A DNA stretch of 26,708 nucleotides from a virus, in the IMG/VR virus record IMGVR_UViG_3300035162_001908, positions 1 to 26,708 of that record; one strand, 5' to 3'. Shown here in pieces: positions 1,994-20,194 of the stretch. Numbering within the stretch: position 1 is the stretch's first letter; each line of letters opens with the position of its first letter. Below the pieces are notes generated by a model. The model saw only the letters and a list, made by a program, of their open reading frames with translations. It did no database searches and was not told the DNA's origin. The position numbers and the translations under genes are program-made.

Positions 1994-2156
1994 CTGGAAG
2001 GCTTTCAAGAAAGGGTGGTCTTTCTTTATCCCGTGCCTAGACGCGCCCCGGTGCCGCCCTATTATTACAAAAGAAGTTCGGCGGTTGAAGTACAAAGTGA
2101 TTACTAAAGTAGTTATAGCAGATGGGGTGCGGGGCATTCGGGTATGGAGAATTTAA
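1962..2156 (+). CDS. Small basic hypothetical protein downstream of primase
   Basis: A short Lys/Arg/Val-rich protein of about 64 residues overlaps the end of the primase gene in another frame. I chose the GTG at 1962 because AGGGAG sits at 1950-1955 with six bases of spacing; an in-frame ATG at 1944 would give 70 residues but lacks a clear ribosome binding site. The protein has a WKAFKKGWSFFIP stretch, then a basic segment, and ends in GVRGIRVWRI. No catalytic motif is visible. The composition suggests a small nucleic-acid-binding or structural role, but that is only a guess. It is the last + strand gene, and its stop codon overlaps the stop of the opposing large gene. The overlap with the primase and the plausible ribosome binding site support it as real. 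Confidence 0.62.
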   Translation: MTVEKVKYQVNWKAFKKGWSFFIPCLDAPRCRPIITKEVRRLKYKVITKVVIADGVRGIRVWRI

Positions 2157-5100: not shown

Positions 5101-7597
5101 CTGCAAACTCTTGCAGGTCTTGACCCCCATACGCATCCCCCATTTGTGTTTTTACCTGGGAAAAGAACTCGAAGAACTCTTGAGTAATGGGTAAGTCTGG
5201 GTTGTTAAGAGCCTGTGCCAAAGCAGCGTGGGCTGCTTCGTGTAGGAAAGTGTCTTCGGTAAGACCTAAAAAAGCTCCCTCTTCTGGGCTGAGGACTATG
5301 GTATCTGTACCTGCATCATAGTAACCGCTTGTGCCTTCTGCCGTAGCACCAACTACTAACTTGGTAGCTAACCCTTGGGAAAGTATCTTACGCAGTATCT
5401 TTTGTACCTCTTTGGGTTGTTTGCTTACTAAGCTGCTAAGAAGCTGTTTAAAGTTGCCCCGTTCTGCTATGCGCCTGTCTGTTCTATCAAGTGCTCTGCC
5501 TTGGGAGGTTGGCTTGTTAGGTAATGGTTTAGGTGGGCTTAGCGCTGTTTGATCTACTGTGTCACTTACGCCTACGCCAGCAGGGAATCTTGTTAATTCG
5601 CTTCTCTTTTTAACTAAATTTTCTACACCGCTGTAATTTCGGTGATTTCGTACTTTCCTGAAGGCTTTAGAACTACCTGTGGCAGGAGCTGTTTCTACCG
5701 TCCTAAACCCTTTTCCTTTGTGGAATACTTCTATCTTTGTCCCTGAAGACGAGTTTTCGTAAGTCTCTATGGGAGTTTCGACTACTGTTTCTATTGTTCC
5801 AGCGGGCGTCCCTGCTGCTGTTACATCTGCGGTTTGGTCTGTTGTTGGGTCTGTTGTTGGAGCTGCAGTAGACTCATTGGGCGTAGGTGTATCCGGTAAA
5901 GGAGGTAAACCTGCAATCCAAGTATCTATTTTGCCTCGGGCTACGTCCCCTAAAGTTTCTTTTGCTAAATTAACCGTTTCTATAGCTTGAGCACGTTGGG
6001 TAGGGTCAGACATATCTTTGTTTGCTAAAGGGCCGTTCTCCCTTAGCAATAGTGCGGTAGGGCCAAGCCCAAAGACTGCTCTACCCCATGCTTTTAACCC
6101 TGCTTCGTCTTTGGGTATGACAACACGCGTGCGGAGTGCTTCAGCATCCGTTGCTTTTTTTTGTTTTGCTTTTTGGATGTTGTATGCTTTCTGTACTTTT
6201 TTGTCTTCCAAAACGTTGTTATCAGCTTGCCATACTTCTAGTTCAGATAAGTTTTTACCAGCTACTGTTACAATCGGGGCTTGCGCCACAGCTGCCGCTG
6301 CTGCCATACCTGAATCGAAAGGTGCGTCTTCTAATCCTGCCGCAGTTTTTTCTGCCGTTGCTTTAATTTCTGCTTGTTGTTCTGCTGCTTGTTTTGCTGC
6401 TATTGCTTTTGCTTGCTCTTCTTCTTGCGCCGCAATTACTTTTTGTTCTTCAGCCTTAGTTGCTGCTCTGTTACGCATGCCTCTAGGAACACCACCTACC
6501 CCACCAAAAGCACCGCCAGCTACAGCACCTCGTACTGACGCCTCTACTATTCTTTCCCAGTCTGCGCTATCCCAGTAGTCTTCATTCTCATTTACAAACT
6601 GTTCAGCGGCTATACTTATGGCTTCTTGTGCACCTTCTGTGACTCCTTCTGTTCCTATACCAGCAGCTAGCCCCAAGCCCACGGGCTTCAGCAACCCTTT
6701 ATCCATACCAGACCGGGTTAGAAGTTTGTTTACGACTGCTTTTTTTGCAGGCCCACTAAATTGTTTCATTAAAGCAGCGGGGAGAATGGAATCCAAAGCA
6801 GCAGACACAGAGCTAAACAATGCCGCAACAGCCGGGGCTGTCTCTCCTGTTTCTTCATAGATGTTACGAAATACTTCGGGGGCGTTAAGTGCATAAGAAC
6901 CTAAGAAGGCTCCAGCCAGTTGTCCCTTGGGGGCTGCTTTAGCTCCTGCCTTGGCCGCTGCCGCAGCAGTCTCTCTTGCAGTTTTAGTACTGTATATCCT
7001 AGCCGATGCTTGTGGAACGGCAGCTTCGACAGCTTTTACTGCACCGGGACTCAAAGGCTTTGCGCGGGGTTTCGCTAACGTAGCTGCTGCTTTTTTAGCT
7101 GCCCCTTCCGCCGCTTTTTTAGTGGCCGCAGTAGCTGCTTTAGTAGCCGCAGCCGCCGCACCTCGTGCTGCAAGAGAACCACCTCCTATACCAGGGACTA
7201 TGGCTGTAGCAAGATTAGGTACTTGTTCACCTACTGTCTCAAGGCCAAACTTAATGGCATCGCCAATGCCTTCAACGTCTTTATAACTTTGGAACTGCGC
7301 TGGGTTAGTGATTGCCAGCCTGCGTTCTTTTTCCGCAGCCTCTGCTAGTTGGGCTTCTGCATACTCATCAAACCCTAAAGCACTTGCGCCCATAGCGGGG
7401 AGTACATCTCCAAACGTAGAACCTAACCGGCTCACACCCCTAGATACACCACGGGTAAAAGTTTCTCCTATCCCATAGTCCGGTCTACGAGGCTCTTTTA
7501 GTTTGTTAAAAGCCTGCAGTACTTGTGCATGATCTTCAGTGCCCTTTTTGTCGTTGTTGTCTACCAACCACTGGGCATATTGTTCAACACTAGCCAT
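2153..7597 (-). CDS. Giant ejected virion protein with zincin HEAAH motif and polyvalent-protein-like C-terminus
   Basis: A protein of 1814 residues, the last gene of the - strand unit. The N-terminus has helical Ala/Gly/Lys-rich stretches (about residues 130-185) and further glycine-alanine segments up to about 370. A Glu/Ala/Gln-rich coiled-coil-like region spans about 370-430, and a Thr/Pro-rich linker follows near 570-620. At residues 786-790 HEAAH, preceded by DTFL, fits a zinc metallopeptidase (zincin) helix. The C-terminal third has hydrophobic segments near 1320-1345 and 1530-1565. It resembles the large polyvalent protein-associated domains (LPD38-like) of giant phage proteins; that name is from memory. 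The position after a transglycosylase protein and the size echo T7 gp16, so the inferred role is ejection into the host with the DNA, with membrane insertion and proteolysis of a host or virion target. It starts with ATG directly after the stop of the upstream gene (TAAATG). Confidence 0.8.
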   Translation of the reverse strand: MASVEQYAQWLVDNNDKKGTEDHAQVLQAFNKLKEPRRPDYGIGETFTRGVSRGVSRLGSTFGDVLPAMGASALGFDEYAEAQLAEAAEKERRLAITNPAQFQSYKDVEGIGDAIKFGLETVGEQVPNLATAIVPGIGGGSLAARGAAAAATKAATAATKKAAEGAAKKAAATLAKPRAKPLSPGAVKAVEAAVPQASARIYSTKTARETAAAAAKAGAKAAPKGQLAGAFLGSYALNAPEVFRNIYEETGETAPAVAALFSSVSAALDSILPAALMKQFSGPAKKAVVNKLLTRSGMDKGLLKPVGLGLAAGIGTEGVTEGAQEAISIAAEQFVNENEDYWDSADWERIVEASVRGAVAGGAFGGVGGVPRGMRNRAATKAEEQKVIAAQEEEQAKAIAAKQAAEQQAEIKATAEKTAAGLEDAPFDSGMAAAAAVAQAPIVTVAGKNLSELEVWQADNNVLEDKKVQKAYNIQKAKQKKATDAEALRTRVVIPKDEAGLKAWGRAVFGLGPTALLLRENGPLANKDMSDPTQRAQAIETVNLAKETLGDVARGKIDTWIAGLPPLPDTPTPNESTAAPTTDPTTDQTADVTAAGTPAGTIETVVETPIETYENSSSGTKIEVFHKGKGFRTVETAPATGSSKAFRKVRNHRNYSGVENLVKKRSELTRFPAGVGVSDTVDQTALSPPKPLPNKPTSQGRALDRTDRRIAERGNFKQLLSSLVSKQPKEVQKILRKILSQGLATKLVVGATAEGTSGYYDAGTDTIVLSPEEGAFLGLTEDTFLHEAAHAALAQALNNPDLPITQEFFEFFSQVKTQMGDAYGGQDLQEFAAELIGNPEFQALLKDTRAPKAPAGKNMWTNIMEAIARFFGFRPGQSAYTKGLEFIDKLLDVSQDVEPTLSDRLFLGTPTVAVKAIGDMFNAAPPFAKKVDAIKNTISNLKGRGLKRMALGTLRIDQMAKLYGVQVPGLKLLGDYILQRQAKIENDIKRIVGNYREFEEINKRVPGDVEELWGIAEEARKKEFDLLGVDKDIETGALLFDKNKLTPAQLREFQALEKRYKKLDPAVQQMYRKMREDYLNSFNAYGKFILDQVTDPAAKQRLTEEFRRKVSKVGYVPLVRFGDFYLSFEDSKGEHFTYSFESIRERDLFRTANEPRFKGKPRPFDRSQIGAGGVDAASFPSDAFIRKLMDNIPNNPDGTPALAKGEVFDMYLELFPESSVIQRLRKAKETKGASADMVRVYGDTMVKWTRKLGNMEYLPKIQQEIRNIQQQGKNYTQANDKAPSVSTINAVVDEILHRKDFIESPNYASLIAKASVGSYSLFILGNISSAIINLTAVPLLVAPVLWGQYANSGTISFNDINKAIVNASKLAVPWGKESWTEKAKYKNLAAKLTEFAQLEHTMQREILEGSKQSTEDYSSTSAKLMNLISVPFAAAETYSRATSAIATYDLAIAAGKTEEVAVREALDIVRDTHTSGMAAEGPRYLQNSFAGGLGRVMFTFKTFIWNSAFVTARAMQQSLKGESPEVKKMARRQVVGIVGMSAAIGGINGLPFYGAVATLVNMINALLGDDEEPFNFKEETRAFTNEFVYKGPLNYLTNLEISNRAGIANGMLFREDPYSIEENGYLMTAVMQALGPLGSYALNIERNFGKQWEAGNYGRALETMSPSMVRNVLKAGRYTMEGARTTKGEPVDTDINGYNLFLQFFGFSPADVTSLYETRSAGLNFQNQIRAIKKRITDRWYAAYTAGDYALAAEAERDLQELGSKYPGLVNKDTLSRSYKTRESQKKNLIAGVRFDSALRPIITDRFLDEFVVD

Positions 7598-10500
7598 TTA
7601 CGCCCCCACATTAAGTGCAGTGGCCTCGGCTACTATATCCACTGGTGGGGCACCGCCACTGCCCAGCATACCCATGCCCATAGTACTCATAACTTGACGC
7701 TCTACTGCTAGTTGAGCGGCTATAGCGGCAGGGTCGCTCTCTTGCAAGAGTTGCATAACTTCGTCTATAGCCATCCCTCCCATTTGCGCTCCAATTCTTG
7801 AATAGTAAATTTGTGGTTCACTACGCAAGTCAGCAATAGCGTCTAGTACGTCACTGGTCATACGTTGTTGGCTTACCGCTAACGCTATTTCTTTATCTAT
7901 TTGCATTTGAGCTTCTTTAACCGTAAGAATTCTACCTTCCAAAGCCATCTTCTCTTGCCTTCCTATTTCTGCTCCTACAGCTCTACCCGAACCACCCAAT
8001 GCGTCTGCGGTTGTAGTAGCCCCCATTCCTCCTGCTCCCCACTCTCTAAGCATGTCCCAGTTAGGCTTGATGCTGGTGTCTTCCACTTCTACTTCTTCTA
8101 CTTCTTCTACCACCACTTCTGGTTCTGGAACTGGCTCCTCTTGCTCTCCATCAAACCCTCCCCCTCGCGCTGCAATTAGCTCAGGGGATGCGGGTACAAA
8201 CTCCCCACCTTCTATTCTGCCTTCTTGGTTTAACCCTCCCTTCGCTACTTCTGTAGAAATAATGGCCCTGATTTGGTCAGGCCCTAAGTTAGGAAACTGT
8301 TCTTTTAATTCTTGCCCGCGTTGTTCTTGTTGTAGTCTCCTACGGCCTTCACTACCAACCCAATCCCACTCACGGGGGTCAAGAATTTCTTTAAGGAGAG
8401 GTCGTAGTCCCCCTTCAACAGATGTAGGGTCTATACCTGCTTCTCGTAATTGTTCTCGTTGGTCGCGCTGTTGTATAAGCCTTTCGATCTCCTCTTCATC
8501 CTTGGAGCGAGGCCGTGCGTACTGCCTTCTATTGGATTCGGGATAATGTTCTGCAGATAAACTTCCTACAGTAGCTTCCCTGGCCGCGCTGCGGGCATCA
8601 AGGTCAACAACCCCGTTTACATCTCCCCCATTATCAAAACCACGCCCTGCTATTAGGGTTGTTACGTCTTCTGTTTCTTCTTCAACGGGCATGCCTGCTG
8701 CATCAACCATGTTTTGATTTTCCTGAAGCATAGCCAAGTAACGAAGCACATCAGGGTCCGCAGCTGGGGTTTCTTGCCCACGCGTGCGTCCCGCCGGGTC
8801 CGCTGCGTTAATCATGTTTTGAGAGTCTTGCATCATAGCTAAGTAACGAGCTGCTCTGCTGCCTTCTTGACGTCTTCCTTCTTGTTTTCTAGCCAAGCGC
8901 CGTAAATAACCTATACCACCATCTGCTTTTTCTTGCTCAGCACGAGCTACAGCTGGCTTCACATCAGGAAAAGCCCTATCAAACCTAGCTCTGCGATCTT
9001 CTTGCTGCGCCCCAATGTTTTGCAAATAGTCCAAAGCCCCTTCAGCACTCTGATCTTGTTGTCGTCCTATGCTTTGCAAGTACTCCAAAGCCCCTCCAAC
9101 ACCTTCAACACCTTCAGAAGTCTCAATGGAGGCAAGTCCTCCTCGATCCGCCGCTGCTCTTTGTTGGCTTCGCGCCATAAGTCCTTTTGCTTCTGGAGGA
9201 TTAAGGTTAGTTGAAAAGTCACGTCGTCCCCTAGGGTTAACATTGCGGCTAGGCGACCCTGCTCTATCTGCCCCCCCTCGGTCAGTTGCCACTCTCTGCT
9301 GGCTTTGTGCCATAAGCCCCTGTGCTTCTGGGGGATTAAGGTTAGTTGAAAAGTCACGTCTTCCCCTAGGGTTAATATTGCGGCTGCGTTCTTCGCTACC
9401 TTGAGCTTCCATCTGACCCATTACTTTTCTTACATAAGGCTCGGTCTGAGCTGCTTGAGGCAACACACTATAATCTCTACCTGCTGCTATAAACCTATCT
9501 GCGTTAGTTGCACCTGCGTTGTAAGCAATAAGCGCAGCTTCAATATCTCCGTCATACCTGTCGATAAAAGCTTGTAAATATTGGCGGGCAAAACTCCGGC
9601 TTGCACTTGGGTCAAACCTATCGCCTTCCATAGGGGGTACGCCAAAGCCTGGGTCTGCCGCAGTTGACGGCATTATTTGATAAGCACCCTCTGCTCCTGC
9701 TGAACTAACTGCATTAGGGTTACCACCGCTTTCAGCCACCATAAGAGCGTCCAAAAGAGCCTCTATGTTGTCACCCCCAACAGAACTACCTTGTGGACCC
9801 GCAAAACCAACAATCCCACCACCAGCCATACCCTCTTCTTGAGCGTCTAAAACCCTTTCCCTAGATTCTTTCATGGCTTCTAGTTGTGATAAAAAATCAG
9901 GGTTTTCTTTATTCCACTGCCGCCTCTGGCCCATACTTTTAGGCCCAGACAGTATCTTCTGGAGTTCGTTGACTGCTTCTTGGTTAGACATGGAACCACT
10001 GTCCACTAGGGATTGTAAAAGTGCTGGAAGGGGTGATCGTAATGCTTCCCTAGCAGTATTTGAACGGCTAAACGTAAAGTCGCTTAGAAATTCAGGAATA
10101 GTTCTAGTGCTATGCTCTCTTCTAGTCCGTTCCATCTCCCGAAGTTCTTCTGCAAAATCTCCACCTGCGGGATTAAACGGCAGTTGTATTTTTCTTGGGG
10201 CGTTAGTTAAAGTCTGCCAACCATCAGGTATTGGTTGTCCCGGTAAATACTGTTTACCCATTTCGTCATACAACGCCTTTTCTACATCTCCTCCATTAGC
10301 AAAACCAACAATGCCACCCTCAGCCATTAATAAGTCTTCACTAATGTCTATTGGTCCTCCCCTAACTGTATACAGTTCTTCTAAGAAACCTTGAGGGTAA
10401 TGGGAATAAAAGTTGTCTCTTTTTTGTTTGTAGGCATCTGCATATTCAGGGGCTACGTATTTACTTTCTTCTTTTAACTGCTTCTCTCCCTCCAAAAACC

Positions 10501-10954
10501 CCATTACCATCTCACTGCCATACTTATCCATAAGGGCAGGAATAGGCTGCACAGACCCACCATCTGCAAAACTCACAATGCCACCACCAGCCATCATCAT
10601 GTTATTGGCAGGCTGCCCTGGTTGTTGTTGTTGTTGGGGTGGTTGAAACTGTTGCATAGCAGCTTGCTGCATCTGTTGCCCCTGCTGCTGTATACCTGGC
10701 GCCAACTGGCTTAGTATTTGGCCCCTGCTACCTTCTACAACTTCCTGCGCTAACGCTTGTTTTTCATTAGGCATTTCCGTTTCAGCACTAGCTAACATGG
10801 TGGTTTTTGCTTCGTTGACAGCGTTAGCAGCTGCCTGCAATGCCAGTAAATCCACCGTTTCCCCAGTAATTTGAAAACGTTCCATCAAAGCTTGTGGGTC
10901 AGAGCCATAAGCGTCTAAACGGTTGCCTACTAGACTATCTATTCCTTGGCTCAT
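7598..10954 (-). CDS. Internal virion protein with embedded lytic transglycosylase domain
   Basis: A protein of 1118 residues. A soluble lytic transglycosylase (SLT) domain lies at about residues 398-513: VAESGGNPNAVS with likely catalytic Glu408, then GAYQIMPSTA, then ALIAYNAGA, the three signatures of the family. It would cleave peptidoglycan glycan strands to let the DNA conduit through, as T7 gp16 does. Around it are low-complexity regions: a Gln-rich tract near residues 85-112, three MA-GGIV-FA-GG motifs (near 117, 211 and 376), a 45-residue tandem repeat after the SLT domain, and paired short repeats of the RYLAMLQ-NQNM type near 710-755. The C-terminus is helical with an acidic Glu/Val-rich stretch near residues 945-975. 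The ATG overlaps the upstream stop (ATGA, 10951-10954), so translation is probably coupled. The size and place match T7 gp15, but the enzyme domain sits here rather than in the largest protein. Confidence 0.88.
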   Translation of the reverse strand: MSQGIDSLVGNRLDAYGSDPQALMERFQITGETVDLLALQAAANAVNEAKTTMLASAETEMPNEKQALAQEVVEGSRGQILSQLAPGIQQQGQQMQQAAMQQFQPPQQQQQPGQPANNMMMAGGGIVSFADGGSVQPIPALMDKYGSEMVMGFLEGEKQLKEESKYVAPEYADAYKQKRDNFYSHYPQGFLEELYTVRGGPIDISEDLLMAEGGIVGFANGGDVEKALYDEMGKQYLPGQPIPDGWQTLTNAPRKIQLPFNPAGGDFAEELREMERTRREHSTRTIPEFLSDFTFSRSNTAREALRSPLPALLQSLVDSGSMSNQEAVNELQKILSGPKSMGQRRQWNKENPDFLSQLEAMKESRERVLDAQEEGMAGGGIVGFAGPQGSSVGGDNIEALLDALMVAESGGNPNAVSSAGAEGAYQIMPSTAADPGFGVPPMEGDRFDPSASRSFARQYLQAFIDRYDGDIEAALIAYNAGATNADRFIAAGRDYSVLPQAAQTEPYVRKVMGQMEAQGSEERSRNINPRGRRDFSTNLNPPEAQGLMAQSQQRVATDRGGADRAGSPSRNVNPRGRRDFSTNLNPPEAKGLMARSQQRAAADRGGLASIETSEGVEGVGGALEYLQSIGRQQDQSAEGALDYLQNIGAQQEDRRARFDRAFPDVKPAVARAEQEKADGGIGYLRRLARKQEGRRQEGSRAARYLAMMQDSQNMINAADPAGRTRGQETPAADPDVLRYLAMLQENQNMVDAAGMPVEEETEDVTTLIAGRGFDNGGDVNGVVDLDARSAAREATVGSLSAEHYPESNRRQYARPRSKDEEEIERLIQQRDQREQLREAGIDPTSVEGGLRPLLKEILDPREWDWVGSEGRRRLQQEQRGQELKEQFPNLGPDQIRAIISTEVAKGGLNQEGRIEGGEFVPASPELIAARGGGFDGEQEEPVPEPEVVVEEVEEVEVEDTSIKPNWDMLREWGAGGMGATTTADALGGSGRAVGAEIGRQEKMALEGRILTVKEAQMQIDKEIALAVSQQRMTSDVLDAIADLRSEPQIYYSRIGAQMGGMAIDEVMQLLQESDPAAIAAQLAVERQVMSTMGMGMLGSGGAPPVDIVAEATALNVGA
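9130..9390 (-). repeat. Two tandem 135-bp repeats after transglycosylase domain
   Basis: Two near-identical copies encode a basic 45-residue unit, RN(I/V)NPRGRRDFSTNLNPPEA, then GLMA-SQQR and DRGG. GTTAA-ATTGCGGCT sites at 9236 and 9371 set the 135-bp offset. Confidence 0.82.
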
Positions 10955-11799
10955 GATCCGCCCCCGCTAGGCAAAAGCCCTATACCCTGCAGTAGCCCTA
11001 TGATGCCCGACGCTCCTGATGTGGCTTGGGCAAAAGAACTAGGTTCTGCGTATGAGTAATCTTGTGTGGTAATAGGTAGCCCTTGAAGCAACGAATTTTG
11101 AAACTGCAATTGTTTGTACGGATCGTTCCGTTCGGCTTCAAACTGCCCTATATCTGCGTTTATACCTTCCACGTCTATACCCCGTTGGACCGCGCCTAAA
11201 TCAGCCTGCTTCAGCAGTCCTTCTAGCCCGTAAGCTCTGTCTTTATCAAATTGCGACTGGGCGTTTGCATACGCTTGCTCATAACCACGTCCGGTTATAG
11301 CTGACATATTTCTAAGAGCTTCTCCTCCGAGTACCCCTTCTGCTGCGCCCTGCCTACTACCGCCGTAAGCACCAGCTTTACCATAACGGCTTTGCAAATC
11401 CCGTTGAGCCAGCCCATAATCTTGAGCAGCTTGTGCGTACTGAGGTTCTAATGCTGCTTCTAAGTAGGGGTTCATGTAGTTTTGCACTACATTGCCGGAA
11501 GCAGGCCCGTAGTAACCCGGTGTTGCTGTGCCGCCAGCTAAAGCACTTGCTGCCGTAGGGGGTGTATAAGCAGAACCTGTAAAAGAGCCGGTAGTAAAAG
11601 CTTGGGGGACAGCAAGGTTAGCTAACCCCGAAAAAGCTTGGTTTTGTAGGTTAGAAGCCCCCGCAGTTAGTGGGCCTTTGTAAGCTTGGTAGGGTTGTTC
11701 ACCGAGCGCCGCTGCCTTACCCAACATGCCTGTTACATACTCACCTGCCCAGGGGGATAGCGAAGATGATCTGCCTAATTCAGTTGCTGTAGTAACCAT
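10951..11799 (-). CDS. Virion protein, probable small ejectosome/core component
   Basis: A protein of 282 residues, rich in Ala, Gly, Gln and Tyr. The middle holds NYMNPYLEAAL, a Gln/Arg-rich helix and then YGKAGAYGGSRQG, a pattern I recognise from conserved phage structural proteins of unknown detail found beside internal virion proteins. The C-terminus has a short hydrophobic glycine-rich segment (SGIIGLLQGIGLLPSGGG) that could contact a membrane. It is followed by the transglycosylase-bearing protein and the giant protein, so by position and size it corresponds to T7 gp14, the smallest core protein. That correspondence is inferred from order and size, not from sequence similarity. The start ATG has TAAGGA seven bases upstream, where the TAA is the stop of the previous gene. 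Confidence 0.72.
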   Translation of the reverse strand: MVTTATELGRSSSLSPWAGEYVTGMLGKAAALGEQPYQAYKGPLTAGASNLQNQAFSGLANLAVPQAFTTGSFTGSAYTPPTAASALAGGTATPGYYGPASGNVVQNYMNPYLEAALEPQYAQAAQDYGLAQRDLQSRYGKAGAYGGSRQGAAEGVLGGEALRNMSAITGRGYEQAYANAQSQFDKDRAYGLEGLLKQADLGAVQRGIDVEGINADIGQFEAERNDPYKQLQFQNSLLQGLPITTQDYSYAEPSSFAQATSGASGIIGLLQGIGLLPSGGGS

Positions 11800-11809
11800 A
11801 ATTATTTCC

Positions 11810-14800
11810 TTACGCTGGGAGCTGTTGCATTGGGTTTATTTGTGCGCCCTGCCGGGTGCTGCCGGTGCGCTCCTGACGTACTCTGTCCATCATTGAATAT
11901 AACTGTTCTGAACCAGCCTCGGAGTTGCCATTACCTAAATGACTTACTACATCAGCAGGTATTACAAATTCGCCATCACTCAGTCTAGCAGGTTCAGCTC
12001 CATCTATTGTAGCAGGTACATTATCGGCCATTCCATCAGTAGGACCACCTAAGTAATATCCCTGGTTACCTTCTAGCAAACCCCCTGCTGCAGAGGCGTT
12101 ACTTATGCTAATTAGTATAGCTTCCGTTGTGCCTAAAGCATCGGCTATAGCTGCTAAAGTATACGTATCTTGGGCTTGCCATGCTTGCACATCAGCTTTA
12201 GTAATAGCTTTATCTTCTGCACTGTAACCCATATCAACCAAATAGTTGTTCAAAGCAATAGCAGTGTCGGAGGGGGCTTCGTAACTAACTACTGAGTTTA
12301 GCTGTGCTTCTGTTACGTTTAACCCAGTAGCAATCTCAGCTAACGTAAAACCATAATCAGCACCCATGAGGTTATTTATATCCTCTGCGGTAATAACTTT
12401 ACCCCCTTTAACCGCGTAACCCAGAGTGCTTAAAGCTGTTTCTAAACCAGTGGGGGCGGTGTAATTAACTATTGAAGTTAAGTCTGTTTCGTTTACACCT
12501 AACGCAGTAGCAATCTCAGCTAAGGTATAGTCCGCATCTGTAAGAGAAGTTATATCTCCTGCTGTAATAACTTTACCGTCGTCAGCATCGAACCCTAAAG
12601 TTACCAAAGCTGCTTCTAAACCAACGGGGGCGGTGTAACTAGATATTGAGTTTAGCTGGTCTTCTGTTACGTCTAACGCAGTGGCAATATCCCCTCCTGC
12701 ATACCCCGCAGTTATAAGCTGGCTTATATGGTCTGCTGTAATAGTTTGACCCCCATCAACACCGTAGCCTAAAGCTATTAAATCTGCCGCTAACCCTTCG
12801 GGGGCGGTGTAACTAGATATTGAGTTTAGCTGGTCTTCTGTTACGTTTAACGCAGTAGCAATATCAGCTAGGGCATAGCCATCATCTGTAAGAGAAGTTA
12901 TATCTCCTGCTGTAATAACTTTACCGCCCTCAACATCAAAATCTAAATCTGCCAAAGCTGTTTGTAAGGCAGTGGGGGCGGTGTAATTAACTATTGAAGT
13001 TAAGTCTGTTTCGTTTACACCTAACGCAGTAGCAATCTCAGCTAAGGTATAGTCCGCATCTGTAAGAGAAGTTATATCTCCTGCTGTAATAACTTTACCG
13101 CCCTCAACATCAAAATCTAAATCTGCCAAAGCTGCTTCTAAACCAATGGGGGCGGTGTAACTAGATATTGAGTTTAGCTGGTCTGTTGTTACATCTAACG
13201 CCTCAGCAATCTGATCTAACGTAAAGTTATTATCACCCCCCGTGAGGTCAGATATATGTTGTTTAGTAATAGTTTGAGTGGCATCAGCAGAAAACCCCAT
13301 CCCACTCAAAGCTGTTTGCAAAGCAGTGGGGGCTTCGTAATCAGATATTGAGTTTAAGTCTGATACGCTTACATCTAACGCAATAGCGATATCAGCTAAC
13401 GTAAAGTTATTGGGGGCTTGGGTGAGAGTATTTATGTCTCCTTTGGTAATAGTTTTACCGCCCACAGCATCAAAATCTAAAGCTACCAAAGCTGTTTCTA
13501 AACCAGTGGGAGCTTCGTAACCAGATATTGCAGCCAAGTCTGCTATGCCTACGTCTAACGCCTCGGCAATCTGATCTAACGTAAAGTTATTATTGCCCCC
13601 CGTGAGGGTAGCTATATGGTCTGCTGTAATGGTTTGACCGTCGGCAGTAAAGCCTAAACCTACCAAAGCTGTTTGTAAGTCAGTGGGGGCGGTGTAATCA
13701 ACTATTGAAGTTAAGTCTGCTGGGTCTACATTTAAGGCAGTAGCAATATCAGCTAACGCATACCCATCTGCGGTGAGGTCAGCTATATGTTGTTTGGTAA
13801 TAGTTTGACTGGCATCAGTAGAAAACCCCATCCCACTCAAAGCTGTGTTCAGAGCCACAGTAGTGTCGGAGGGAGCTTCGTAATCAACTATTGAAGTTAA
13901 GTCTGTTGCCTCTACCCCTAACGCAGCAGCAATATCCTCTAGTGCATAACCGGCATCAGTGAGGGTAGATATATCGTCTGTTGTAATATTTCTACCACCC
14001 GCCTCAGCGAATCCCATACCCCCTAAAGCTGTTTGCAAAGCAGTAGGAGCTGTATAGTTAGCTACGCTCAATAAAGCAGTGGGGTCAGTCCCCAACGCAG
14101 TAGCAATATCACCCAACGTAAATACACTTTGCCGCCCAAATGCAGCTATATCGTCTGCGGTAATGTTTCTTGCAGTTTCTCCAAAACCCATCCCTCTTAG
14201 GTAATTGTACAAATCACTGGTGCCTCCAGTGGTAGTAGCCGAGGTACTTCCGGGGGCAACCGAAGCTGCAACAGCGGGGGTTTCAGTTACAGTTGTAACA
14301 CCCCCTAAAGTAGGGGCACTACCAATAGTACTTGCGGTTCCACCGATGTTTGGGAGTGTGTCTACGGTAACACTACCGCTATCACTTCCGCTTCCGCTTC
14401 CGCTTCCAGTAACACCGCTACCTAGGTTTCCAGTAACACTACCGCTACCTAGGTTTCCAGTAACACTACCGCTACCCAGACTTCCAGTAACACTGCTACC
14501 TTCGTTAGTACTTCCAGAGGCATAATTTTCGCCATAGGCATCCATGTACGCCTGCCCTAGGGACAGGTTATAGGCGGCTTGATCAGCGGCAGCTTTTGTA
14601 GCAGCAGCGTTAGCAGTGGCAAGGTAATCGCCGCCCAGTATGTTGTTAGTTGTTACTCCGTCTGTAGTGGTAGTTACCGGGCTATAGAGTCCTCCTGTAG
14701 TGGGGTAATCAAAATAGTTACGGCCCATACTCCCCGGTCGGCGCGGTGCTGTTACACTGGTAGTTGCCCCTGGCACGTCCCGCTGGTCCAACATCCCTCC

Positions 14801-15100
14801 TGTGTTTGTATACCATTCAGTAACTGGCACTTCTTTCTGGTAGGTATTAGCAAACGCATTGTCTTTAATTGTTGGATTGTAAGTGTATTCTGGTATACCC
14901 CCCTGGTATCCTGAAGAACCTTGGGTATCTCCACTGCCTCCCTTCAAGCCAAGTATTCCCCCTAGGCCCGCACCCAACGCACCAATTAAAGTTGAATTGT
15001 CCGAAGCCCACTTCCCAAACCCACCAGTGGTACTGCCAGTGGCACTGCCACTTCCACCTGAATTGTTCAAGGCATTGTACTGCGCTGTTGTTAGCGGCAT
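11810..15100 (-). CDS. Virion protein with twelve ~59-residue HTH-like repeats
   Basis: A protein of 1096 residues in three parts. Residues 1-297 are low complexity: a Gly/Ser start, a short hydrophobic stretch TLIGALGAGLGGILGLKGG that may span or touch a membrane, and Ser/Gly repeats of the GSVTGNLGSG type near 205-240. Residues 298-1007 are twelve degenerate repeats of 57-64 residues; each runs L-x-ALxxLGF, then ITxxDI-xLT, then YTLAEIATALGV, then LTSIVxYxAP. The second half of each unit looks like a helix-turn-helix pair. Residues 1008-1096 are a conserved phage cap: GGPTDGMADNVPA, then LSDGEFVIPADVVSHLGNG, then LYSMMDRVRQ. Such caps are common in marine phage structural proteins, but the function is unknown to me. 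The start has a strong GGAGGTG five bases upstream. It lies between structural genes, so it is most likely virion-associated. Confidence 0.78.
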   Translation of the reverse strand: MPLTTAQYNALNNSGGSGSATGSTTGGFGKWASDNSTLIGALGAGLGGILGLKGGSGDTQGSSGYQGGIPEYTYNPTIKDNAFANTYQKEVPVTEWYTNTGGMLDQRDVPGATTSVTAPRRPGSMGRNYFDYPTTGGLYSPVTTTTDGVTTNNILGGDYLATANAAATKAAADQAAYNLSLGQAYMDAYGENYASGSTNEGSSVTGSLGSGSVTGNLGSGSVTGNLGSGVTGSGSGSGSDSGSVTVDTLPNIGGTASTIGSAPTLGGVTTVTETPAVAASVAPGSTSATTTGGTSDLYNYLRGMGFGETARNITADDIAAFGRQSVFTLGDIATALGTDPTALLSVANYTAPTALQTALGGMGFAEAGGRNITTDDISTLTDAGYALEDIAAALGVEATDLTSIVDYEAPSDTTVALNTALSGMGFSTDASQTITKQHIADLTADGYALADIATALNVDPADLTSIVDYTAPTDLQTALVGLGFTADGQTITADHIATLTGGNNNFTLDQIAEALDVGIADLAAISGYEAPTGLETALVALDFDAVGGKTITKGDINTLTQAPNNFTLADIAIALDVSVSDLNSISDYEAPTALQTALSGMGFSADATQTITKQHISDLTGGDNNFTLDQIAEALDVTTDQLNSISSYTAPIGLEAALADLDFDVEGGKVITAGDITSLTDADYTLAEIATALGVNETDLTSIVNYTAPTALQTALADLDFDVEGGKVITAGDITSLTDDGYALADIATALNVTEDQLNSISSYTAPEGLAADLIALGYGVDGGQTITADHISQLITAGYAGGDIATALDVTEDQLNSISSYTAPVGLEAALVTLGFDADDGKVITAGDITSLTDADYTLAEIATALGVNETDLTSIVNYTAPTGLETALSTLGYAVKGGKVITAEDINNLMGADYGFTLAEIATGLNVTEAQLNSVVSYEAPSDTAIALNNYLVDMGYSAEDKAITKADVQAWQAQDTYTLAAIADALGTTEAILISISNASAAGGLLEGNQGYYLGGPTDGMADNVPATIDGAEPARLSDGEFVIPADVVSHLGNGNSEAGSEQLYSMMDRVRQERTGSTRQGAQINPMQQLPA
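12080..14209 (-). repeat. Twelve in-frame tandem repeats of about 174 bp
   Basis: The repeat array lies inside the 1096-residue virion gene. Units are 57-64 codons, most often 58 (174 bp). Bases 12448-12578 are identical to 12970-13100, an offset of 522 bp or exactly three units, so part of the array has been duplicated as a three-unit block. A separate stretch from about 12895 to 12960 recurs at 13069-13134, one unit away. Lengths stay in frame throughout. Confidence 0.88.
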
Positions 15101-15115
15101 ATTCCCACCTCCGCG

Positions 15116-17401
15116 CTAACTATAAGGATACAACAATTCATTTTCTTCTTCCTTTGTAAGTTCTGGGGCAAAAATAGTGTCCCCAAAACGTTGGAATAAA
15201 TATTCAATTTCGGCTAAACCACCTGGCCCACCAGCCACTTGACCTGGGCCGCCACCGCCAGTATCCATCCCCCCACCGCCACCACCACCACCACCACCAC
15301 TGCTACCACGCAATGTACTGGTTTTCTCAGCTGGTGATGTCGATCCCTTTATTTCACCTTTAAAGACCTCACCAGCGGTCAATGTTCCCTCTAAACTACC
15401 TGCCCTTAACGTCCCTTTAAGATCACCTGGGGCACCCTCATTTAGACTGGCCCTGAGTGTTGCAGCTGCGCCTGGAAAATCTTCTCCTAGGCTACTCCTG
15501 TACGTTGTACTCGCGCCGGGAACGTGCTCTAGGGTACCCGATGCATTGGGTCCAGTCTCTAGTGTTACAGCGCCTCCAAAGCTTGGCCCGGAGCGTAGCT
15601 CAGATATGCCCCCTCCTATCGAGGGTTCTCCAGTTAGTGTTACACTCCTTAAAACATTTGGCTGTTGGTCTAACGCACCTATACCCTTTTTAAGTTCTAA
15701 CTTTTGGTCTAACGCATCTATGCTCTTTTTAAGGTCTAATGGGCTGTAATCTACACGTTTGGTAATGTCATCTAACGGGTCAGCAATAGCTACACGTTTG
15801 GTAAGGTCATCTGGCTTGACGTCAACCTGTATACCTGCGGTAAGGTCTAACGGGCTGTAATCTACACGTTTGAGAATGTCATCTAACGGGTCAGCAATAG
15901 CTACACGTTTAGTAAGGTTTAAGGGGCCTGCTGTATCCAGTCCAAGTACCCCCGTGGCAGACTCGCCTTGAAGTCCTGTTCCCGTACTAAATATTGTGTT
16001 TATTTTGTCAAGATCACTAACAGTTGAAGTGGTCGTATTATCAACTACTGGGGTTAGAAAGGTCTTTATCTCGTCAAGCGATACACCCGTCTGCTCAGAC
16101 AAATCTGCAATGGTTAAACCGTTGTCCTCTAAAGCTTGTAAGACTGCTGCTTTACCAGCTTCACCACCACCAGCATCGTCGAACACTTTTATAGCCTTTT
16201 TATAGGCAATTTGCTGAGGCGTCTCTACAACAATATCTGTACCAGTACCAGTAGTAACAATATCTGCACCCGTCGCAGCTGGGGTTAGAAAAGTCTCTAA
16301 CTCAGCGATTGATACACCCGTCTGCTCAGACAAATCTGCAATGGTTAAACCGTTGTCCTCTAAAGCTTGTAAGACTGCTGCTTTGCCCTCTTCTCCACCA
16401 CCCGCACCATCGAACACTTTCATCGCTTTGTTATAAGCAATTTCTTGAGGGCTTAACCCCCCATAGGTAAAGACCGTATCAGGGGTAGTTGCATTTGCGT
16501 CGATAGCGGGAGTAACAGTAGTAGGATCAAAAGTTTCGGATGCATCTTCCCCCAATAAACTTAGCGTCCCCGCTGCCCCCGTCACGCCTCCAATATTTTC
16601 CCATATAGTACCGAAGTCAGGTTTTTTAATTCCCGAAATACTCCCATCTGCATCAGTGGTGGTAGACCCCCCAATAAGAGCATCAAGGGCTGGGATGCCT
16701 GTACTGGCTGCAACAATAGTCCCGTCTTTAGTCTCTCCTATTTTTAAAGGAGTGTATTGCCCTGAATCAGTGTATTGTCCCGTAACCGACCCCTGCAAAG
16801 GGTTTAAGGTCACTTGTCTAAAATTAGGGCCACCTACTGTATTCATTGCCCTATTCATACCAGTTGTTGCAAGTTGGGCTACTGTTACGATCCCCCTTTT
16901 TAGAAGGCTACCATAGGGACTACCACCTAAGCCTTCTAGCGCAGCTTTAGTCACTTGAACCGCATTTTGCCGCCCCTTTTGCCCCCCCTGCTTATCGTAC
17001 TCACTCCCCACGAAAAAGTCTGAATCTTGCTCGTCGCCCTCCTCAGTCCATTTATCAGCGGTATCGTACTTTCTACCTTTGTTGTAGTTCCTCAAATCTA
17101 ATACTGCCTTGGCATAAGCCTCTTCTGCTCGTCTTAGTTTGGCTTCCTCAGTTAAAGGTAGGTTTAATATATCTTGAAGCGTAATTTTACCGCCGCCAGT
17201 AGTCGCAGGAGTGGCAGAAGAGGTAAAAGAGTTGAGTCCAGCCGCAGCAAGGGCATTAGCATCCATCTGCAAGCCCCGTGCATTAATCGCTGCATAGGGG
17301 TTACCAGTGACATTCATAAGAGTGGCACCAGGGTGCTGATCTAAGATGTCTTGAAAAGGGTCTATGTCTACCCCTGATAAAATTCCTTCATTACTTTCCA
17401 T
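15116..17401 (-). CDS. Repetitive virion-associated protein sharing HTH-like unit with neighbour
   Basis: A protein of 761 residues with no domain I can name. The N-terminal 300 residues contain a charged helix near 80-135 and Gly/Thr-rich segments. Two 77-residue repeats (about 315-455) each hold QIAY-KA-KVFD-AGGGE, then LEDNGLTIADLSEQTGVS, whose end resembles the HTH-like repeats of the next gene. Near 500-570 a 37-residue unit is duplicated (LTKRVAIADPLDDI, then KRVDYSPLDL), followed by several short related LKK-I-ALDQ units. A run of ten glycines near residue 705 is encoded by a CCA/CCG tract. The C-terminus is acidic. The upstream stop TAA merges with TAAGG two bases before the ATG. Its place in the structural block suggests a virion or scaffold-like role; this is inferred only from context. 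Confidence 0.68.
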   Translation of the reverse strand: MESNEGILSGVDIDPFQDILDQHPGATLMNVTGNPYAAINARGLQMDANALAAAGLNSFTSSATPATTGGGKITLQDILNLPLTEEAKLRRAEEAYAKAVLDLRNYNKGRKYDTADKWTEEGDEQDSDFFVGSEYDKQGGQKGRQNAVQVTKAALEGLGGSPYGSLLKRGIVTVAQLATTGMNRAMNTVGGPNFRQVTLNPLQGSVTGQYTDSGQYTPLKIGETKDGTIVAASTGIPALDALIGGSTTTDADGSISGIKKPDFGTIWENIGGVTGAAGTLSLLGEDASETFDPTTVTPAIDANATTPDTVFTYGGLSPQEIAYNKAMKVFDGAGGGEEGKAAVLQALEDNGLTIADLSEQTGVSIAELETFLTPAATGADIVTTGTGTDIVVETPQQIAYKKAIKVFDDAGGGEAGKAAVLQALEDNGLTIADLSEQTGVSLDEIKTFLTPVVDNTTTSTVSDLDKINTIFSTGTGLQGESATGVLGLDTAGPLNLTKRVAIADPLDDILKRVDYSPLDLTAGIQVDVKPDDLTKRVAIADPLDDITKRVDYSPLDLKKSIDALDQKLELKKGIGALDQQPNVLRSVTLTGEPSIGGGISELRSGPSFGGAVTLETGPNASGTLEHVPGASTTYRSSLGEDFPGAAATLRASLNEGAPGDLKGTLRAGSLEGTLTAGEVFKGEIKGSTSPAEKTSTLRGSSGGGGGGGGGGMDTGGGGPGQVAGGPGGLAEIEYLFQRFGDTIFAPELTKEEENELLYPYS
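15271..15300 (-). repeat. Trinucleotide tract coding for polyglycine
   Basis: A CCA/CCG run encodes ten consecutive glycines near the C-terminus of the 761-residue protein. Changes in copy number by slippage would keep the reading frame. Confidence 0.8.
15741..15925 (-). repeat. Pair of 111-bp-spaced direct repeats
   Basis: Sequence starting GGGCTGTAATCTACACG at 15741 recurs at 15852 with a few changes, an offset of 111 bp or 37 codons. It encodes the duplicated LTKRVAIADPLDDI and KRVDYSPLDL segments. Confidence 0.75.
16080..16384 (-). repeat. Pair of 231-bp-spaced direct repeats in virion gene
   Basis: Bases 16080-16153 match 16311-16384 exactly (74 bp), an offset of 231 bp or 77 codons. 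The copies encode the LEDNGLTIADLSEQTGVS unit of the 761-residue protein, whose second half resembles the repeats of the neighbouring gene. Confidence 0.85.
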
Positions 17402-17405
17402 AGCC

Positions 17406-18302
17406 TTACCCGTCTATCAACACGCCCTGAAAGGCGGCGCTGACTTGGTTATTAGTATTAGACGTGAGTGCACGACACTCTATGTCGGTTTTGGCAGCGA
17501 TAGACAGCGGGTAGTTAAACGGTGACACGTTACTGTTGCTCTGCATTACCTGTATAAACTTTGTTCTGAATGCGGTACTGGCAAACGCACGGGTTACAAA
17601 CTTTACCGTGGCATAATTATTTGCAGCTGAAATAGCTGACGTAAACGTAATGTCATCCACATACAAAGTCTTACTAGCTGGGACGGTGTACGTTGCCATC
17701 TGCGTCTGGTTAGCAGTACCAAAGCTTGCATATACTACCGGGGGTACACCAGCGGTAGCTCCCGTTGTACCTACGTAAACAGTACCAGCACTGGCTCCAT
17801 TTGATCCCGCTGTCAGCACATAAGCCCTGAAAATTCTTAAATACTCTTTCGTCGTAATTACTTGGGTTTGACCATTCAGGGCAATATCTTCTTCTATCTC
17901 AAGGTAATTGGCATCTAGCCCCTGTACCTTTATGGTTCGCACCCCAGTACCACCGGGGCTGACATCGTTAACATCACTACTGGAGATATAAACTTCAGCC
18001 GCCGCAGCGGGGTAAACTAAGTCTCCCCCCTCTGTCCACACAGTTTCCTCTGTGGTATCTACATCGGCGTTAAAGCCAAACTTGAACAAAGAAGTAGCGC
18101 CAGTAATCTGGCCTTCTGCAACTCGTAAATTGTAGGGGACGGCGGTAGCCACGGCGTTCCTTAATGCGTTATCTAACTGGTTAAAATATAAACGTAATAT
18201 ATTGTTAAAACGATCCAAATAACCTTTCTGGTAGTCCACCGGTGCTGTGGGTAAAGCGGGTGCGACTACATTACTGTCGGTGTCTTGCGCCGTAGTAGGC
18301 AT
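17406..18302 (-). CDS. Beta-rich virion structural protein
   Basis: A protein of 298 residues, of the type seen in many marine podovirus-like genomes between tail/neck genes. After a polar start, residues 30-60 form a helix (YLDRFNNILRLYFNQLDNAL). The rest is beta-rich: ETVWTEGGDLVYP, SGDVN-like turns, GTGVRTIKVQGLDANYLE, then IALNGQTQVITTKEYLRI and TVPASKTLYVDDI, ending in a short hydrophobic strand. No enzyme motif is present. Its start ATG overlaps the stop of the preceding gene by one base (TAATG at 18304-18300), which implies coupled synthesis with the larger tail protein. A role in the tail tube, neck or fibre attachment is likely, but the exact position in the particle cannot be read from the sequence. 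Confidence 0.75.
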   Translation of the reverse strand: MPTTAQDTDSNVVAPALPTAPVDYQKGYLDRFNNILRLYFNQLDNALRNAVATAVPYNLRVAEGQITGATSLFKFGFNADVDTTEETVWTEGGDLVYPAAAAEVYISSSDVNDVSPGGTGVRTIKVQGLDANYLEIEEDIALNGQTQVITTKEYLRIFRAYVLTAGSNGASAGTVYVGTTGATAGVPPVVYASFGTANQTQMATYTVPASKTLYVDDITFTSAISAANNYATVKFVTRAFASTAFRTKFIQVMQSNSNVSPFNYPLSIAAKTDIECRALTSNTNNQVSAAFQGVLIDG

Positions 18303-20194
18303 TATCGTCTACCATCAGGACGCATATCTAAACGCGGTGCACCCAACTGCCACGCCACACCCTCCGCTGTTGACTCCATTGTAAACGCTATCTGTCGGCC
18401 CCTTATCCGTAGATACACCTGCCCAGTGAACTGCTCAATAGGGACAGTAGCTGACCGCGTTACAGTATTAGAGGAATTACCTCCCTCTGATAAAGGACTG
18501 TTATAACCTGATCCAGAGTTAGCCATAGGCGAAAGCGTCATAATGGCTGCGGGATTAGTAGCACTAGACCCATCAAAGGTTACATCAGGCAGCATACGGT
18601 TAATCAGCACAAAAGAATGCCCGTCATCTAAGTCAAATTCTGAGGAAGTTATTGAAGCTGCTATAGCAGCAGTAACCCCGGTTTCTTTGTTGTCATTGCC
18701 TTTTTCATGGTCAACTAAGTTGTTACTATAAGTAGCGGCTATTGGCCTATCTCGTAGTCCTGAGTCTAGCCATGCGGTACGTGCTATGTTGCCGTAATAC
18801 CATATATCTTCAAGGTAATTGTAGACCACGTAACGATCATTAGCCAAAACCCCATCTGAACAGTAGAACCACCACACTTCATTAAACCCTTCGTTAGTGC
18901 CTGACACCACTTGGTTAAATTGTTCCGTGTTGATGTCATTAAATATATAGCGTTTAACATTGCAGGGTAGGGTCATTACTGTGCCGTCATATTTGTAGAA
19001 CTTGTCACGCCCCATCCAGTACGCTGTACTACCTGCGTAAGCGGTAGCATTTTGACTAGCAATAGAGATGTTGTCTCCCATTAACTGGGCATTCCACACA
19101 ATGTCACCACCTAAATACTGCAGGGAATAAAGGGCTGAATCAGTCCATACCAAGACTTCCTGGCGAGCTTGCACGACAGCAATGATTTCTGTTCCATGTG
19201 AAACACGGATGCTACCTGCTGTCCCCGTTGCTGTAACCGACCAATCAAACACATCTTCTTGGTTAGACCACCGTATAAGCATAGGGTCTTGAACCACACT
19301 GCCTACAGTGTTCGCACCAAAGGCAAACACAAAACGGTAGATGTCCGAAACACTCACAATGTTAACAATGGAAGGAGCATCTACAGAAAGAGGGTAGTTG
19401 GTGGTGTCTATTATTTTACCGCGCACACTGGTGCCAGTACTTGCATCCCAGTAAAAAATAGGCCCACCACGGTAGGCAAACACTAAGTCTTCACCGTAGT
19501 TAGATTGGCTCCATAGGCGGATGGCAGACGAAGAAGCGTTGGAATAGCCCCATGTACCTAAGCCCCACCCTCCAGAACCCCATCCACTAAAAGGTACAGC
19601 GGTAGCAGAACCTGTATTAATTTGGTAGGTGCCTATAACCGCAGCGCCACCATTTCCTGTATCTAAAGCATTAGCAGTAACAGTAACGTCGGAAGTGTCT
19701 TTGGCAGCTACAGTGTAGGTATCGTCGGTAAGTACCGTAGAGATTTCATATTCTTGGTTGAGGACAGCAGCAGTTATATTGCCCCCTAAAGTTACCGCAC
19801 CGGAGAAGGTAACAAAGTCACCAGCAACAGCCCCGTGGGAAACATTGGTAATAGTAAGAGTGGAGGAGCCGTTTGTAGCTGAGAAAGTTACTGCACCTGC
19901 TATGGTAGTCAGACGGATAGGGGTTATATCGTAGTAATTTCCGCCACGTTCTATATAGTACTTAATGGTAGTGCCTACACTAACTAGGTTCTGACCACCT
20001 AGTGTGATCCAGTTCCACAGTGAACGACAGACTCCCAGGAACGTGTTTGCAGAGATGCGCTCCCAGCCACCAATCTTCTCAGGCATCCCCTGACGAAAGC
20101 GTACTTTGTCGGATTCATACCAGCCACCTTCAGTCGTATACCGTGTGTTCTCACGGTCAACCCCCGGTTTTAATTGAAGTTTCTTGAGTGGCAT
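18302..20194 (-). CDS. Tail/neck structural protein, gp12/gp10-like class
   Basis: A protein of 630 residues beginning MPLKKLQLKPGVDRENTRY, then GGWYESDKVRFRQGMPEKIGGW. This opening is a widely conserved signature of phage tail structural proteins in marine podoviruses. The rest is beta-rich with repeated Trp/Tyr/Gly strands (WGSGGWGLGTWGYS near residue 205; WTDSALYSLQYLGGD near 357), a pattern that fits a propeller-like or multi-sheet fold such as the T7 gp12 nozzle or P22 gp10 tail protein. That structural comparison is inferred; I cannot show homology by eye. It starts one base inside the lysozyme stop (TAATG), and the lysozyme's last codons, GAG GTT AGG, supply a Shine-Dalgarno-like sequence. 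Confidence 0.78.
   Translation of the reverse strand: MPLKKLQLKPGVDRENTRYTTEGGWYESDKVRFRQGMPEKIGGWERISANTFLGVCRSLWNWITLGGQNLVSVGTTIKYYIERGGNYYDITPIRLTTIAGAVTFSATNGSSTLTITNVSHGAVAGDFVTFSGAVTLGGNITAAVLNQEYEISTVLTDDTYTVAAKDTSDVTVTANALDTGNGGAAVIGTYQINTGSATAVPFSGWGSGGWGLGTWGYSNASSSAIRLWSQSNYGEDLVFAYRGGPIFYWDASTGTSVRGKIIDTTNYPLSVDAPSIVNIVSVSDIYRFVFAFGANTVGSVVQDPMLIRWSNQEDVFDWSVTATGTAGSIRVSHGTEIIAVVQARQEVLVWTDSALYSLQYLGGDIVWNAQLMGDNISIASQNATAYAGSTAYWMGRDKFYKYDGTVMTLPCNVKRYIFNDINTEQFNQVVSGTNEGFNEVWWFYCSDGVLANDRYVVYNYLEDIWYYGNIARTAWLDSGLRDRPIAATYSNNLVDHEKGNDNKETGVTAAIAASITSSEFDLDDGHSFVLINRMLPDVTFDGSSATNPAAIMTLSPMANSGSGYNSPLSEGGNSSNTVTRSATVPIEQFTGQVYLRIRGRQIAFTMESTAEGVAWQLGAPRLDMRPDGRR

What the first reader, a model, noticed from the sequence alone, without database searches (positions are those of the whole stretch)
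12080..14209. Twelve HTH-like repeats form the body of a virion protein
Each unit ends with a pattern like YTLAEIATALGV followed by LTSIV, which looks like the two helices of a DNA-binding helix-turn-helix, but twelve occur in a row in a protein with low-complexity flanks and a conserved phage C-terminal cap. This could be a solenoid spanning a fixed length, or a multivalent DNA-binding strap inside the particle. The function is unknown to me.
Basis: partly seen in the sequence, partly recalled or inferred. Interest (0 to 1): 0.72.

Follow-up and report, generated by a model that had tools for sequence, protein, structure and literature searches.

The report
Tape-measure-capped string of helical beads
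A marine phage particle protein has a body of twelve tandem copies of a small fold that normally grips DNA, but these copies are acidic and lack DNA-gripping residues, and the protein ends in a motif shared with the tail-length rulers of long-tailed phages, so it is probably a stretchable ejected spacer rather than a DNA strap.

Summary
The repeat is real. Residues 293-1003 of the 1096-aa protein (window 12092-14224, minus strand) are 12 tandem units of 56-64 aa, and all 12 are found by a profile built only from other phages. AlphaFold2 gives four helices per unit (pLDDT 82). Helices 2-4 superpose on solved HTH domains, so the HTH-like fold is supported. DNA binding is not: the array has 15 basic and 102 acidic residues, and 47 would-be recognition helices from seven proteins hold no Lys or Arg and 62 Asp or Glu. 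The array is not a fixed length either. Relatives carry 10, 9, 9, at least 7, 4, 3, 3 or no clear units, and inner units duplicate within each lineage. New here: the C-terminal cap is homologous to a C-terminal motif of tail tape measure proteins, although the gene lies among DNA-ejection genes of what looks like a short-tailed phage. My best explanation is a tape-measure-capped virion protein ejected with the genome, whose body is a flexible acidic bead string of evolvable length. Fold, charge, cap homology and copy-number variation are shown by computation. Virion location, ejection and spacer role are inferred.

The parts
14225..15100 (-). N-terminal region, residues 1-292: start, hydrophobic Gly/Ala-rich stretch, low-complexity Gly/Ser/Thr linker with three 27-bp repeats (14414-14494)
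   Evidence: ORF translation; TRF
14057..14224 (-). unit 1 (edge unit, diverged)
   Evidence: branches outside the inner units
13883..14056 (-). unit 2
13697..13882 (-). unit 3
13520..13696 (-). unit 4
13340..13519 (-). unit 5
13160..13339 (-). unit 6
12986..13159 (-). unit 7 (88% identical to unit 10)
12812..12985 (-). unit 8
12638..12811 (-). unit 9
12464..12637 (-). unit 10
12284..12463 (-). unit 11
12092..12283 (-). unit 12 (edge unit, diverged)
   Evidence: branches outside the inner units
11813..12091 (-). C-terminal cap, residues 1004-1096, homologous to the tape-measure C-terminal motif TSDSIPAxLSNGExVV
15116..17401 (-). upstream gene, one ORF with the repeat protein in L001, L016, L017, L022 and L024; holds two 58-aa HTH-like repeats at 16280-16453 and 16049-16222
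   Evidence: hhalign to the units is weak
10951..11799 (-). next gene downstream, PHROG 'DNA ejection protein'
   Evidence: phrog_4287, E 7e-11
7598..10954 (-). large virion-type protein with lytic transglycosylase (SLT) domain
   Evidence: PF01464 E 1e-20; phrog_2013, phrog_342
2153..7597 (-). 1814-aa protein, C-terminal half like DarB-type polyvalent proteins
   Evidence: phrog_10089 E 8e-56
18302..20194 (-). virion structural protein, 'stabilization protein' in relatives
   Evidence: phrog_3287 E 6e-58; 123 phage records

Best explanation
It is a virion protein encoded with the DNA-ejection genes of a probably short-tailed marine phage. Its C-terminus is the docking motif of tail tape measure proteins, and its body is a string of 12 small acidic four-helix beads with an HTH-like fold. 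The beads do not bind DNA in the usual HTH way. They act as a flexible spacer that repels DNA and that can probably unfold, pass the tail and refold. The cap would dock on the tail or hub side, and the string would leave the particle with the other ejection proteins and help bridge the envelope. Bead number is set by unequal tandem duplication, so the length can be tuned. Shown computationally: repeat, predicted fold, charge, cap homology, gene context, copy-number variation. Inferred: presence in the particle, ejection, docking, refolding, spacer role.
For: Twelve units found by an independent profile. Four helices per unit, pLDDT 82; helices 2-4 match HTH folds. Net charge -87 in 711 residues, and 0 Lys/Arg against 62 Asp/Glu in 357 recognition-helix residues of 47 units. 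Cap: 26 of 35 members hit a tape-measure PHROG, other tape-measure PHROGs down to E 8.6e-11. The related DSL-LC04 cap hits 872 phage records, and nearly all of the 60 listed are annotated as tape measure. hhalign probability 94-97%, against a best of 13% for 100 shuffles. Neighbours are a DNA ejection protein, an SLT transglycosylase and a stabilization-type protein. Unit number varies and inner units cluster by protein. The last 60 residues of the TP901-1 tape measure are needed for infectivity, and its C-terminus is proposed to act in the tail initiator complex (PMC5099701). Tape measures are proposed to form a trans-periplasm conduit in long-tailed phages, as the T7 core proteins do in a short-tailed one (PMC10883804).
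Against: No proteomics or electron microscopy was found for this phage or for an array-bearing relative. Most cap proteins have no such array, so the beads are not needed for the basic function. The cap alone was predicted with low confidence (pLDDT 55), so its homology rests on sequence. Short tail is inferred from relatives called Podoviridae and from finding no tail-tube family among the proteins scanned.
Confidence: 0.45

Rival explanations
1. Multivalent DNA-binding strap: each unit is a working HTH that grips packaged DNA inside the head.
For: HTH-like fold, HTH-type Pfam families above their cut-offs when summed over repeats, gene among virion proteins.
Against: Array net charge -87; no basic residue in 47 recognition helices, 62 acidic; no individual unit-to-HTH-family match is strong.
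Confidence: 0.07
2. True tape measure: the phage has a longer tail than assumed and the array length sets it.
For: Cap homologous to the tape-measure C-terminal motif; some isolates annotate the cap protein as tape measure; tape measures evolve by unit duplication (PMC3271669).
Against: Neighbours are ejection genes, and no tail tube or terminator family turned up among the proteins scanned. Cap-protein length runs from 124 to 1479 aa, many under 300. The predicted body is small beads, not long helices.
Confidence: 0.15
3. Protein-binding scaffold or DNA mimic: beads are docking sites for another virion protein or for a host factor met during entry.
For: Acidic surface; whole-unit matches include the peptide-binding PEX14 N-terminal domain (Z 5.5); conserved repeating hydrophobic core with variable surfaces.
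Against: No partner is known; edge units are conserved while inner units drift by lineage, which is not typical of a fixed binding surface.
Confidence: 0.2
4. Weakly constrained expansion: the repeat grows by slippage and recombination and has little function of its own.
For: Large lineage-specific copy changes; the most recent pairs have dN/dS near or above 1 (units 7-10 and 7-8); most relatives lack the array.
Against: Several older pairs have dN/dS 0.44-0.55; core residues are invariant and the frame is kept over 12 units; edge units are 70-86% conserved between L016 and L103.
Confidence: 0.13

Closest known systems
Tail length tape measure proteins of long-tailed phages (e.g. phrog_3547; Vibrio phage PG28, Mycobacterium phage Angel, Pseudomonas phage Ps59)
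   Same: C-terminal motif; body that grows by tandem unit duplication; variable total length; virion setting
   Different: Units are 56-64 aa four-helix beads, not 11-aa W/F-marked or long-helix repeats; gene sits among ejection genes; tail probably short
Short-tailed-phage ejection proteins (T7 gp14-gp16, P22 E-proteins, PhiM1 ejectosome)
   Same: Gene neighbourhood with an ejection protein and a transglycosylase virion protein
   Different: No sequence match of this protein itself to those families; tape-measure cap and bead array are not described for them in the passages read here
HTH domains (ParB/Spo0J, phage immunity repressor 7r6r)
   Same: Predicted helices 2-4 superpose at 1.2 A over 41 residues (7r6r)
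   Different: Acidic, no basic residue in the recognition helix, 12 in tandem, in a virion-type protein
Cap-bearing proteins of Synechococcus phage MinM2, phage DSL-LC04, Caulobacter phage GB2A and pelagiphage HTVC027P
   Same: Same cap family and similar gene order
   Different: No bead array

Membership tests
HTH DNA-binding domain | Three-helix HTH geometry | tested here: met
   Model pLDDT 82; helices 2-4 on 7r6r 1.2 A over 41 residues, Z 5.9; unit on 1vz0 Z 6.0. Moderate Z only; common arrangement
HTH DNA-binding domain | Basic/polar DNA-contacting recognition helix | tested here: not met
   0 K/R, 62 D/E in 357 residues of 47 recognition-helix windows
HTH DNA-binding domain | Binding to DNA | not testable with these tools
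   Needs purified protein
Tail length tape measure protein | C-terminal TSDSIPAxLSxGExVV motif | tested here: met
   PHROG hits in 26/35 members; 872 phage records; hhalign 94-97% versus 13% at best in shuffles
Tail length tape measure protein | Gene between tail tube/assembly chaperones and distal tail genes | tested here: not met
   Neighbours are stabilization-type, ejection and transglycosylase genes, unlike true tape measures
Tail length tape measure protein | Gene length proportional to tail length | not testable with these tools
   No virion images; cap-protein length 124-1479 aa among relatives
Short-tailed-phage ejection (internal core) protein | Sequence match of the protein itself to known ejection families | tested here: not met
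   PHROG scan gives only HTH-type partial matches for this protein
Short-tailed-phage ejection (internal core) protein | Gene within an ejection-gene cluster | tested here: met
   Next gene phrog_4287; then SLT virion protein; same order in L001, L002, L016 and G001
Short-tailed-phage ejection (internal core) protein | Present in virion and leaves it on infection | not testable with these tools
   Needs proteomics of full and emptied particles
LysM domain | Beta-alpha-alpha-beta fold | tested here: not met
   Pfam 22.7 bits over cut-off 20.9, but the model has helices only, no strands
RepB plasmid partitioning protein (PF07506) | Match across the 185-position domain | tested here: not met
   Best stretch covers profile positions 14-50 of 185, no stretch significant on its own

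The most novel reading that the evidence does not exclude
The HTH-like fold has been reused as a structural building block. A short-tailed phage builds a tape-measure-derived ejection filament from duplicated acidic non-DNA-binding HTH beads, and the number of beads tunes the reach of the ejected complex across the host envelope.
Probability: 0.25. Interest if true: 0.75.

Novelty: new variant of a known kind. Interest (0 to 1): 0.55.

Why it matters
It links the rulers of long-tailed phages with the ejection machinery of short-tailed ones through a shared C-terminal motif, and it shows an HTH-like fold used in tandem as probable building material. If the bead count sets reach, natural variants with 3 to 12 beads form a ready-made series for testing how short-tailed phages cross the envelope.

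Tried and rejected
DNA-binding strap: rejected on charge. EF-hand or dockerin-like reading of the GGKVIT segment: rejected by inspection, because the loop spacing is off and the acidic positions are lost in relatives. LysM: helices only in the model. Fixed ruler: copy number 0-12. Cap structure: predicted, but pLDDT 55, so not searched. Profile against PDB sequences: only a weak HTH hit (2x48, E 0.018) and coiled-coil noise. Foldseek against PDB and viral models: no hit at E 0.001 or better; top hits mostly HTH proteins, none spanning the array convincingly. P22 portal family: no match in eight related records; the T7-type portal search was uninformative because its control was silent. Hits L018-L021 are unrelated RNA-polymerase-like proteins with one C-terminal HTH. 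Roseobacter phage CRP-13 (E 0.7) does not match the unit profile. Homology of the two repeats in the upstream gene is suggestive only (hhalign 43-53%).

Full report
Observation. The ORF at 11810-15100 (minus strand) encodes 1096 aa. Its residues 293-1003 repeat with a 58-residue period as 12 units of 56-64 aa, 30-88% identical to one another. At DNA level Tandem Repeats Finder reports periods of 174, 180 and 360 bases. A profile built only from units of other phages finds all 12 units, each at E 1e-8 or better, and none in 20 shuffled copies.

Fold. A three-unit stretch (units 7-9), aligned with 13 other three-unit stretches from this protein and from L016, L017, L022, L024 and L025, was predicted at mean pLDDT 82 and pTM 0.52. 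Each unit has four short helices and no strands. Against solved structures, helices 2-4 fit a mycobacteriophage immunity repressor HTH at 1.2 A over 41 residues (Z 5.9) and a whole unit fits the Spo0J/ParB HTH domain at Z 6.0. A PEX14 domain, which binds peptides rather than DNA, fits nearly as well (Z 5.5). Such Z values are common for helical folds, so I claim HTH-like geometry, not membership. The modest pTM gives no sign of one rigid solenoid, but the tool returned no pairwise error, so bead orientation stays open.

Charge. The array holds 15 Lys/Arg and 102 Asp/Glu, net -87, pI 4.05; all 12 units are negative. Across 47 units of seven proteins, the recognition-helix windows (about 8 residues each) contain no Lys or Arg and 62 acidic residues in 357. 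Overall Lys/Arg content of the units is 3.1% (74 of 2412), so about 11 would be expected at random; units are related, so I give no P value. The usual HTH way of gripping DNA is therefore unlikely.

Cap. The last 93 residues are conserved at 61-77% identity in IMG/VR relatives and at 45% in Synechococcus phage MinM2. Scanned one by one, 26 of 35 cap members match phrog_3547, tail length tape measure protein, and other tape-measure PHROGs reach E 8.6e-11. The cap of phage DSL-LC04 finds 872 phage records, with almost every listed row annotated as tape measure. In Vibrio phage PG28 and Pseudomonas phage Ps59 the motif lies about 84 and 110 residues from the end of the tape measure; in Mycobacterium phage Angel it is about 430 residues from the end. 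Profile-profile comparison of IMG/VR caps with six tape-measure segments gives 94% probability, E 1.8e-7; column shuffles reach at most 13%. With four isolate caps added it is 97%, E 1.2e-11. In phage TP901-1 the last 60 residues of the tape measure are needed for infectivity, and its C-terminus is proposed to act in the tail initiator complex (PMC5099701).

Context. Downstream lie a DNA ejection protein (phrog_4287), a 1118-aa protein with a transglycosylase domain and an 1814-aa protein with a DarB-like C-terminal half. Upstream lie a gene that is one ORF with the repeat protein in several relatives, and a stabilization-type virion protein shared with pelagiphages, roseophages and others. 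A 60.6-kb relative (G001) encodes terminase, portal, Mu gpT-like capsid, tail fibre, ejection and transglycosylase proteins; no tail-tube family appeared among the proteins scanned, which did not include every small ORF. HTVC023P-type relatives are described as Podoviridae (PMC9599517). A short tail is therefore likely, not shown.

Variation. Counts are 12 here, 10 in L016, 9 in L022 and L103, at least 7 in L017 (cut off), 4 in the held part of L025, 3 in L024 and L001, one or two weak ones in L031 and L002, and none in most of about 90 cap proteins of 124-1479 aa. In a unit tree, inner units cluster by protein while the first, second and last units group across L016, L017 and L103 (L017 is cut off before its last unit). 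Inner units are 53-90% identical within a protein and 37-42% between this window and the others. The array grows by local tandem duplication between conserved edge units. Recent pairs have dN/dS near or above 1 with few changes; several older pairs have 0.44-0.55. Tape measures are known to evolve by unit duplication (PMC3271669), but with other units, such as an 11-residue period marked by Trp.

Mechanism. I propose that the cap docks the protein at the tail or hub side, as in tape measures, and that the acidic string is expelled with the ejection proteins and helps bridge the envelope. Tape measures are proposed to form a trans-periplasm conduit in long-tailed phages, and the T7 core proteins build one in a short-tailed phage (PMC10883804; ejection proteins reviewed in PMC8954989). 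Acidic beads would repel the packed DNA; electrostatic repulsion has been suggested to shape DNA around the PhiM1 ejectosome (PMC11440229). Small helical domains are plausible cargo for passing a narrow channel and refolding, as partly unfolded T7 gp16 can do (PMC8954989). Virion presence, ejection, docking and refolding are inference.

Verdict. This is a new variant of a known kind: a tape-measure-capped virion protein with an acidic HTH-like bead body, in a probably short-tailed phage. The DNA-binding and fixed-length readings are not supported. Interest 0.55.

Noticed in passing
window 15116-17401 and 11810-15100: These two genes are one ORF in L001, L016, L017, L022, L024 and others, and two ORFs here and in L003: a gene fission or fusion at the same point.
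   Followed up: partly
window 16049-16453: The upstream gene holds two 58-aa copies (83% identical) with an HTH-like end, the same unit length as the main array; homology to the units is weak.
   Followed up: partly
window 2153-7597: 1814-aa protein: C-terminal half like DarB-type polyvalent proteins (phrog_10089), with a weak stretch matching virion RNA polymerase phrog_2206.
   Followed up: no
window 21470-22183 and 22840-23628: Small genes that by inspection look like a 2OG-Fe(II) oxygenase and a sulfotransferase, between tail and lysis genes; oxygenase genes sit near the same place in HTVC023P and HTVC027P.
   Followed up: no
L018, L019, L020, L021: Large phage RNA-polymerase-like proteins (DFDGD motif) with a single C-terminal HTH, in phages rich in paralogous HHGIKGMKWGVRR proteins.
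   Followed up: no
L016 4145-8581, L022 2882-7279, L103 4638-8981: The array-bearing fused proteins also carry a second low-complexity repeat, GGAGxxDVFGGAGSADV, upstream of the beads.
   Followed up: no
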